NCBI GenBank assembly: GCA_016207985.1
Contig: JACQYX010000066.1
Span: 1 to 5,063 of the forward strand
Origin: Ignavibacteriales bacterium
GTDB taxonomy: Bacteria > Bacteroidota > Ignavibacteria > UBA10030 > SZUA-254
Direction: 5' to 3'
DNA length: 5,063 nt
Position 1 is the stretch's first letter, and each line of letters starts with the position of its first letter. Below are positions 119-4,566 of the stretch, piece by piece. The notes beneath the pieces are model-generated. The model had not been told where the DNA came from. It did not search any database and saw only the letters and a list, made by a program, of their open reading frames with translations. Made by a program: the position numbers and the translations under genes.

Positions 119-147
119 TTGACTTTTATAAATAAGAGTCGTATAAT
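119..147 (+). promoter_or_regulatory. Strong sigma70-like promoter of the small RNA candidate
   Basis: A -35 hexamer TTGACT (119-124) and a perfect -10 hexamer TATAAT (142-147) are separated by exactly 17 bases. Eleven of twelve positions match the consensus at the optimal spacing. Transcription would begin about 6-8 bases downstream, near 153-155, which is exactly where the 5' arm of the long inverted repeat starts. There is no plausible protein gene downstream on this strand, so the promoter most likely serves the structured RNA. Its classical form differs from the TAnnTTTG type promoter usual in Bacteroidia. Confidence 0.75.
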
Positions 148-153
148 TAATAC

Positions 154-226
154 GAGCATTAGGCAGGATCCACGGTTTCTGACTTCGCCTCCCAAGTTGG
201 AATGCCCACCTGCCAATGCTCTTTTT
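154..226 (+). ncRNA. Candidate small structured RNA with built-in terminator
   Basis: This is a compact transcript of about 73 nt, read from the preceding promoter. The 5' arm GAGCATTAGGCAGG (154-167) pairs with CCTGCCAATGCTC (209-221), giving 13 base pairs with A161 bulged. TTTTT (222-226) follows at once, so the closing stem also serves as an intrinsic terminator. Inside, CTGACTT (179-185) can pair with AAGTTGG (194-200), leaving an eight-base loop CGCCTCCC (186-193). GGT (174-176) can pair with GCC (204-206). Neither arm is part of a plausible protein. The opposite strand has no T-tract after the stem, so the plus strand is the transcribed one. I recognise no known family: it is not a tRNA (no T-arm), too short for 6S RNA or tmRNA, and lacks the conserved SRP RNA core. 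The function is unknown. The C-rich loop suggests, as inference only, an RNA that base-pairs with purine-rich mRNA sites. Confidence 0.6.
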
Positions 227-3451: not shown

Positions 3452-4309
3452 ATGAATATATTCTGTCTTGGCATTAATCATCGCACAGCACCTATCGAGG
3501 TCCGAGAGAAGTTATGGTTTTCTTCGACTGAACTTCCTTTTGTTCTTTCTGACTTAAAAGAAAAACACTTCAGAGAGCTTGTCCTCGTTTCTACCTGCAA
3601 CCGAACTGAATTATACTTCGTTAGTGAGCAAATAACAAACAACGACTCGCTCTGGAAAATTCTTTCGGCACAAAAGAATGTCGAAAATGATGTCCATGGT
3701 AGTCATTTCTATTTGCTGACATCACTATCAGCCGTTAAACACCTTTTCGGCGTTACCTCGGGTATCGATTCGATGGTATTAGGTGACGTTCAGATACTCA
3801 ATCAGATGAAGGAAGCTTTTAGTTTAGCTCAACAAAATCAAGCGACCGGGCTTCTATTAAATCGTTTATTCACTACGGCATTCCGCGTTGGGAAACGTGC
3901 ACGAACCGAAACCGAGATAGGTGAAGGAGCGGTATCGGTGAGTTACGCTGCCGCTGAGCTTGCATCAAAGATTTTTGAAGACCTTACGAAACATACAGCG
4001 CTGCTTATTGGTGCAGGTGAAACTGGAGAATTAACCGCAAAACACTTAGCAAGCAGAAATTTAGGAAATATCCTCATCTCCAACCGAACACGTAAACGAG
4101 CGGAAGAGCTTGCAGCAACGCTCAATGGAGATGTGATTGATTTTGAAAAACTGTTAGAAGCACTTGATCGCGTCGATATTGTCATCAGCTCGGTAGAATC
4201 ACCTGAATATATTCTTAAGGTAAAAGATATTCGTCAAAAGATGAAAACACGTGGTAATAGACCATTATTTATAAACAGTTTAAAGCATGGTACGATTCGT
4301 TGGAAGTAA
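3452..4309 (+). pseudogene. hemA: Glutamyl-tRNA reductase, 5' part of a broken hemA
   Basis: GluTR reduces glutamyl-tRNA(Glu) with NADPH to glutamate-1-semialdehyde, the first committed step of C5-pathway tetrapyrrole synthesis. This frame encodes the catalytic domain: LGINHRTAPIEVREK (6-20), then STCNRTELY (47-55) with the nucleophile C49, then GIDSMVLGDVQIL (104-116) and VGKRARTETEIGEGAVSVSYAA (146-167). The NADPH domain follows, with the Rossmann loop LLIGAGETGELTAKHL (184-199), NRTRKRAEEL (211-220) and ISSVESPEYIL (245-255). Family similarity stops at RPLFI (270-274), where the usual DxAVPRD(I/V) segment should follow. The last residues, NSLKHGTIRWK, are out-of-frame reading of the downstream part, and the frame ends at TAA 4307. 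At 285 residues it is far short of the usual 415-430 and lacks the dimerisation domain. It begins at ATG 3452 with no Shine-Dalgarno. All visible catalytic residues are intact, so the lesion looks recent or may be an assembly error. Confidence 0.88.
4262..4285 (+). other. Predicted deletion and frameshift junction in hemA
   Basis: Upstream of here the family matches in the frame of ATG 3452 (RPLFI, ending 4273). Downstream it matches in the frame of 4261 (IIYKQFKAWYDSLEVTPTIQ, from 4264). The frame shifts at this point, and about 50 codons expected between the two parts are absent. In the downstream frame a TAG stop lies at 4258-4260, so that frame opens only at 4261. The bases ATTATTTATA (4264-4273) can be read plausibly in either frame. 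That would fit a deletion between two short direct repeats, but it cannot be shown without an intact copy. Confidence 0.75.
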
Positions 4310-4566
4310 CTCCGACTATCCAACAGTTGAGGGATCAGTTCGAGGTGATTCGCAAAACTGAAGTTGAAAAGCATCTTCATCACTTCGCAGCAGATGAACA
4401 TGAAACAATTGAAATTCTAACAAGACGCATCGTCAATAAAATTCTTCACACTCCGATGGTTAACTTGAAAAACGGCACAGGCGAACAGATGGACGACGAG
4501 ATCCGCTCAAAGATTCATACACTGCGACATTTATTTGGCTTAGACAAAAAAACTCATTTAAAATGA
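4300..4566 (+). pseudogene. hemA: Glutamyl-tRNA reductase, 3' part of a broken hemA
   Basis: This frame encodes the C-terminal dimerisation domain of GluTR. The family pattern begins upstream of any start codon, at about 4264 (FKAWYDSLEV), and continues with TPTIQQLRDQFEVIRKTEVE, a helical stretch, [16 protein letters not shown] and the typical end [10 protein letters not shown]. The coordinates give the first possible initiator, a TTG at 4300 that overlaps the TAA of the upstream part. Independent translation from it would need coupled re-initiation, and the product would have no catalytic or NADPH domain. Joined with the upstream part plus roughly 50 missing codons, the length would be about 420 residues, the normal size. 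The TGA stop overlaps the ATG of hemC in ATGA, showing that the original operon structure downstream is preserved. Confidence 0.85.

What the first reader, a model, noticed from the sequence alone, without database searches (positions are those of the whole stretch)
119..226. Unassigned small RNA gene: near-perfect promoter, self-closing stem, T-tract
TTGACT-N17-TATAAT is followed, at the expected initiation distance, by the first base of a 13 bp closing stem (one bulge). Its 3' arm runs straight into TTTTT. Promoter, 5' end, stem and terminator fit together as one unit of about 73 nt, in a place with no protein gene. I recognise no known RNA family. This is the best candidate for something undescribed in the window.
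Basis: partly seen in the sequence, partly recalled or inferred. Interest (0 to 1): 0.72.

Follow-up and report, generated by a model that had tools for sequence, protein, structure and literature searches.

The report
New small RNA gene beside nuo
This stretch holds a gene for a small RNA of about 73 letters, absent from the Rfam catalogue and kept in 12 of 15 genomes of one bacterial family related to Ignavibacteria, that is likely transcribed on its own and predicted to damp chosen genes by pairing its nearly unchanging C-rich loop with their messenger RNAs, although no target has been proven.

Summary
Promoter (TTGACT-N17-TATAAT), 13-pair closing stem beginning at +1 (154) and T run (222-226) are there as stated. 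Relatives show that they are kept as one unit: 12 of 15 genomes of the window's family carry one copy, 0 of 376 other genomes of the class sample do. In the 11 closest copies the promoter spacing is always 17 and the stem begins 5-6 nt after the -10 box. The closing stem covaries (21 doubly changed cells; 0 of 500 shuffles reach it), the 40-nt core is 94% identical between copies, flanks about 33%. In 10 of 10 readable close relatives it lies divergent from nuoA. No Rfam family matches; SRP RNA and weak 6S candidates lie elsewhere; no Hfq was found. Function is inferred: the loop CGCCUCCC suggests an sRNA that masks G-rich ribosome-binding sites, but 1468 sampled gene starts show no general enrichment of complements. 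Post hoc lead: GGGAGGC precedes 3 of 5 IS200-like transposase starts, one with a 13-nt perfect complement. A protein-binding RNA is the main rival. New member of a known kind; moderate interest.

The parts
119..147 (+). predicted promoter: TTGACT (119-124), 17-nt spacer, TATAAT (142-147)
   Evidence: TTGAC-N17-TAnn(A/T)T kept in 11 of 11 closer copies
154..226 (+). small RNA gene, about 73 nt, predicted transcript from +1 to the end of the T run
   Evidence: fold z -5.55; 12 of 15 family genomes; covariation
154..167 (+). 5' arm of the closing stem, with bulged A161
   Evidence: covaries with 209-221
168..173 (+). 5' side of the internal loop (AUCCAC), mostly invariant
174..185 (+). 5' arm of the apical stem (GGUUUCUGACUU)
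   Evidence: nearly invariant, one-sided changes only
186..193 (+). C-rich apical loop CGCCUCCC, proposed seed
   Evidence: identical in 11 of 12 copies; CUCUCCC in G001
194..206 (+). 3' arm of the apical stem with bulged U203
209..221 (+). 3' arm of the closing stem
222..226 (+). T run; with the closing stem the predicted intrinsic terminator
   Evidence: longest T run 4 to 8 after the stem in 11 of 11 closer copies

Best explanation
This is a single-copy, stand-alone gene for a small RNA of about 73 nt, kept in 12 of 15 genomes of the window's family, that is likely made from its own promoter, likely ends at its own terminator, and is predicted to act in trans by pairing its C-rich loop with G-rich translation-start regions of a few mRNAs and so lowering their translation. 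The closing stem starts at +1 and would leave no free 5' end; with the T run it doubles as the predicted terminator, so it probably protects and ends the RNA. The apical hairpin would present CGCCUCCC (186-193) as the seed, and pairing could spread into the 3' arm, as in the 13-nt complement at one transposase start. Shown: conservation, covariation, gene anatomy, synteny. Inferred and untested: transcription, pairing, repression, targets. No Hfq was found in the family, so pairing would need another chaperone or none.
For: Conserved unit: 12 of 15 family genomes, one copy each. Closing stem: 98.4% of cells paired, 6 pairs and 21 cells changed on both sides, covariation score 0.340 against 0.169 in shuffles, 0 of 500 reaching it; slid controls at or below 0.073. 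Promoter spacing, start distance and T run kept in 11 of 11 closer copies. Mean pairwise identity 0.94 in the core, 0.54-0.55 in the stem arms, 0.32-0.34 in the flanks. Loop CGCCUCCC identical in 11 of 12 copies, C-rich in the twelfth. Candidate pairing: 13-nt complement of GCCUCCCAAGUUG over the region before the ATG of an IS200-like transposase in G010; GGGAGGC before 3 of 5 such transposases (Fisher p 3.8e-7, post hoc), or 2 of 5 with mechanical first-ATG starts (p 9e-5); GGGAGGCGTATG before a secreted-protein-like gene in G009 and G010. UCCC seeds that bind Shine-Dalgarno sites are known in Staphylococcus (passages of PMC9217828).
Against: No general enrichment: complements of 8 nt or more to the core at 16 of 1468 starts, against 21 and 26 in two control windows; 6-nt loop matches at 21 starts against 18.7 for permuted motifs, 7-nt at 6 against 2.7 (3 of 55 permutations reach it) with 8 in the downstream control window; 397 genome hits of GGGAGGCG-N(0,20)-ATG against 346 for a scrambled motif. 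G008, whose core equals the window's, has 0 of 146 starts with a loop match of 6 nt or more. Four of seven orthologues of the secreted-protein-like gene lack GGGAGG. Co-folding does not favour the 13-nt duplex over the separate folds. The apical stem sequence is as conserved as the loop, which a seed alone does not explain. No transcript data.
Confidence: 0.45

Rival explanations
1. A protein-binding RNA: the conserved internal loop, apical stem and loop would together form a recognition surface for a protein that the RNA sequesters or scaffolds, in the manner of 6S or CsrB RNA, without pairing to mRNAs.
For: Both arms of the apical stem and the internal loop are conserved in sequence, not only the loop; no general enrichment of complementary sites at gene starts; no Hfq.
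Against: No partner identified; I did not search for CsrA or RRM proteins. The C-rich loop resembles known seeds, and some starts do carry complements.
Confidence: 0.32
2. A regulator tied to the neighbouring nuo operon, acting on nuoA mRNA or through the shared divergent promoter region.
For: Divergent from nuoA in 10 of 10 readable close copies, 140-308 nt from its start.
Against: In G001 the RNA lies elsewhere, near tRNA genes. The nuoA leaders printed show no GGGAGG-like site. Genus g4 keeps nuoA without the RNA.
Confidence: 0.08
3. A cis-acting leader or attenuator (riboswitch-like) of a downstream gene.
For: Structured RNA ending in a terminator-like stem and T run.
Against: The next gene in the window is on the opposite strand, convergent, and the right-hand genes differ between relatives.
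Confidence: 0.03
4. A chance hairpin, a mobile-element end or part of a coding sequence.
For: Promoter-like sites in the window are about as frequent as in shuffles.
Against: Covariation, conservation and single-copy synteny; no viral-contig pattern match and no plasmid match; every frame stopped in at least 2 copies.
Confidence: 0.01

Closest known systems
RsaE / RNAIII type sRNAs with UCCC seeds (Staphylococcus; passages of PMC9217828)
   Same: C-rich seed that could pair with G-rich Shine-Dalgarno sites
   Different: Other lineage, other fold, no Rfam match; no target shown here
GibS / FopS sRNAs of Bacteroides (passages of PMC11697453)
   Same: Short stand-alone sRNAs with intrinsic terminators that bind translation initiation regions; FopS about 65-70 nt
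   Different: FopS has a single-stranded 5' seed and 14 paralogues; here the 5' end is paired, the seed would be a hairpin loop, and there is one copy per genome
6S RNA (RF00013)
   Same: Stand-alone RNA with a closing stem and an internal loop
   Different: About 73 nt against a 187-position model; no match here; sub-threshold 6S candidates lie at other places in relatives
Bacterial small SRP RNA (RF00169)
   Same: Small, highly conserved hairpin RNA
   Different: Separate SRP RNA gene found in 12 of 15 family genomes

Membership tests
Any Rfam 15 family | Match to the covariance model | tested here: not met
   Only a chance-level GIR1 match elsewhere in the window, 15.9 bits against a cut-off of 100
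6S RNA | Match of this RNA to RF00013 | tested here: not met
   None at this place; 5 of 15 genomes have sub-threshold matches elsewhere, 3 of them at E below 1e-4
Bacterial SRP RNA | Match of this RNA to RF00169 | tested here: not met
   None here; over the cut-off elsewhere in 12 of 15 genomes, not found in G000, G006, G011
Riboswitch / attenuator leader | Gene directly downstream on the same strand | tested here: not met
   Convergent gene in the window; variable right side in relatives
Stand-alone bacterial sRNA gene | Own promoter and terminator kept across relatives | tested here: met
   11 of 11 closer copies by sequence; G001 lacks the promoter pattern
Stand-alone bacterial sRNA gene | Expressed as a discrete transcript | not testable with these tools
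   No RNA-seq available
C-rich, Shine-Dalgarno-masking sRNA | Unpaired C-rich seed conserved across copies | tested here: met
   CGCCUCCC in 11 of 12, CUCUCCC in G001
C-rich, Shine-Dalgarno-masking sRNA | Conserved complementary sites at mRNA starts | tested here: inconclusive
   No general enrichment; single candidates
Hfq-dependent sRNA | Hfq present | tested here: not met
   0 of 15 family genomes; 5 of 14 control genomes ring

The most novel reading that the evidence does not exclude
A lineage-fixed guardian sRNA: its C-rich loop masks the ribosome-binding site (GGGAGGC) shared by IS200-like / REP-type transposases, so that one chromosomal RNA silences a family of mobile genes in trans, without Hfq.
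Probability: 0.1. Interest if true: 0.7.

Novelty: new member of a known kind. Interest (0 to 1): 0.45.

Why it matters
It adds a small RNA family, supported by sequence, structure and synteny, to a bacterial class for which the paper searches made here found no small RNA described (open-licence papers only). The core is far more conserved than its own stem and flanks, so it probably meets a fixed partner; finding that partner would show how small RNAs work in a lineage in which no Hfq was found. If the transposase lead holds, it would be a chromosomal RNA brake on mobile elements.

Tried and rejected
6S and SRP identity: rejected. Coding: rejected; the most open frame (minus strand) is stopped in 2 of 12 copies, the others in 2 or more (in one search I recounted 7 rows, leaving out L003, L004, L006, L008, L009). 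Pairing with rRNA: longest exact complement 7-8 nt in four rRNA loci, no shuffle control; the duplex energies printed there looked unreliable and are not used. Homologues upstream of nuoA in genus g4 and other families: none with R1, filters off, 20 loci, best E 1.4, none by eye in the 12 such upstream regions printed. Wider search: 12 of 391 genomes of the class sample, all in the family (strict filters lose weak matches; R2 was built from these same copies). General Shine-Dalgarno masking: not supported. GGGAGGCG-N(0,20)-ATG gives 397 hits in ten genomes against 346 for a scrambled motif; the tool's own backward controls are 202 and 217 (sums). In the first sample G010 had 6 of 142 starts with 6 nt or more, permuted mean 1.9, 5 of 200 reaching it, and G008 0 of 146; the larger sample did not bear out an enrichment. 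Of 30 loci returned for that motif, two looked like real gene starts by eye (L099, L111).

Early alignments mis-set strands or the 3' arm (A1-A4) and fold_alignment on A3 gave 0 doubly changed pairs; they were not used for the pair counts, which come from alignments fitted to a model whose structure I gave from these sequences, so they lean towards it. The identity profile leaves out L003 (same RNA as the window and L004) and G001.

The transposase lead is post hoc; 3 of 5 places one start (L231) by homology, mechanical starts give 2 of 5. No genome lacking the RNA could be checked for the same leaders.

Full report
OBSERVATION. The stated elements are in the sequence: TTGACT 119-124, TATAAT 142-147, spacer 17; 5' arm GAGCATT-A-GGCAGG 154-167; 3' arm CCTGCCAATGCTC 209-221; TTTTT 222-226. 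The site is the best of 19 promoter-like matches in the window, a number near that of shuffles. The fold of 150-235 has z = -5.55 and 0 of 200 shuffles are as stable. Rfam gives nothing at this place up to E = 5, and ARAGORN finds no tRNA or tmRNA in the window.

RELATIVES. BLAST with 150-224 found strong matches (E below 1e-11) in 10 of the 14 other genomes of the window's family; the best match in other families among the 60 genomes searched had E 0.03. A covariance model of five copies (R1) found 12 of 98 genomes of the order, adding a divergent copy in G001 (E 0.014). A model of all 12 copies (R2) found the same 12 of 391 genomes of the class sample. So 12 of 15 family genomes carry one copy each; the three without a match (G003, G011, G014) are all of genus g4. 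A DNA pattern over the genome collection gave 9 loci, titled Ignavibacteria or Ignavibacteriae (6), Bacteroidota/Bacteroidetes (2) and Chlorobiaceae (1). The same pattern had no match in viral contigs, and blastn found none in plasmids.

ANATOMY ACROSS COPIES. Over 10 copies compared pairwise, mean identity is 0.94 in the 40-nt core, 0.54-0.55 in the two stem arms, 0.55 in the promoter stretch and 0.32-0.34 in the flanks. The stem arms drift but pair: on the model-fitted alignment (12 rows, 10 distinct) 98.4% of cells pair, 6 pairs and 21 cells change on both sides, and the covariation score is 0.340 against 0.169 in shuffles, reached by 0 of 500; the number of doubly changed pairs alone is reached by 48 of 500. 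The apical stem changes on one side only. TTGAC-N17-TAnn(A/T)T, 5-6 nt to the first paired base, and a T run of 4 to 8 are kept in 11 of 11 closer copies; G001 shows no such promoter. A promoter of similar look lies about 200 nt before the 16S gene of G010, which suggests, but does not prove, strong expression. The loop CGCCUCCC is identical in 11 of 12 copies; G001 has CUCUCCC.

NEIGHBOURS. In 10 of 10 readable close copies the RNA is divergent from nuoA (with nuoB and, where in reach, nuoC), 140-308 nt from the nuoA start (one NuoA checked by Pfam, PF00507; the others by likeness). The window starts at the first base of its contig, so nuoA would lie off the end. On the right, a PduO-type cobalamin adenosyltransferase (Pfam for the window's) is seen in the window and in 7 of the 10 loci (by likeness). 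In G001 the RNA lies near tRNA genes and a response-regulator-like gene. Genus g4 keeps nuoA but not the RNA.

WHAT IT IS NOT. Not coding, not 6S or SRP, not the leader of a downstream gene. For the window's own, 61% complete genome neither 6S nor SRP was found.

MECHANISM. The C-rich loop resembles seeds that mask Shine-Dalgarno sites (passages of PMC9217828). The family genomes use Shine-Dalgarno sequences at a minority of starts: AAGGAG before 65 of 1468 sampled starts, against 4 and 9 in control windows. A general role is not supported: complements of 8 nt or more to the core occur at 16 of 1468 starts, against 21 and 26 in control windows; 7-nt loop matches at 6 starts, permuted mean 2.7, reached by 3 of 55 permutations, but 8 in the downstream window; 397 genome hits against 346 for a scrambled motif; G008 0 of 146. 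Starts were placed mechanically (first ATG of long frames). Single candidates exist: a 13-nt complement just before the start of an IS200-like transposase (PF01797) in G010; GGGAGGC before 3 of 5 such transposases found in the sample (Fisher p 3.8e-7, or 9e-5 for 2 of 5 with mechanical starts, post hoc); GGGAGGCGTATG before a secreted-protein-like gene in G009 and G010, GGGAGG in G007, neither in four other orthologues. Co-folding does not favour the 13-nt duplex. Hfq is found in 0 of 15 genomes. I commit to a trans-acting, base-pairing sRNA with few targets at 0.45, with a protein-binding RNA close behind at 0.32.

LITERATURE. In the open-licence library, Ignavibacter with sRNA gives 0 papers, with structured RNA 2 papers, listing seen only, and in the search with small or noncoding RNA none of the 15 papers listed (of 18,651) holds the name. 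Of PMC9217828, PMC2864571 and PMC11697453 I saw passages only; other papers only in search listings. The comparison with CsrB is recalled.

Noticed in passing
window 3452-4566: The glutamyl-tRNA reductase gene (hemA) is split: GlutR_N and Shikimate_DH domains in the frame 3452-4309, the dimerisation domain in another frame, 4300-4566. A frame change in the assembly or the genome.
   Followed up: partly
L155:10162-10644, L166 minus strand (start about 5493), L231 about 15857: IS200-like (Y1) transposase genes with GGGAGGC shortly before the start; short palindromes lie upstream of at least one.
   Followed up: partly
L139, L132, L135 upstream of the secreted-protein-like gene near the SRP RNA: GCCTCCC lies upstream of the GGGAGG before the start and can fold over it, the same letters as the RNA's loop: a possible own anti-ribosome-binding hairpin.
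   Followed up: partly
L043, just after the RNA on its strand: In G001 the T run is followed at once by AGGAGGTGATG, a strong ribosome-binding site with a start codon.
   Followed up: no
L083, L084, L085: Sub-threshold 6S RNA candidates (E 4e-6 to 3e-5) in G008, G013 and G001, perhaps a divergent 6S of this lineage.
   Followed up: no
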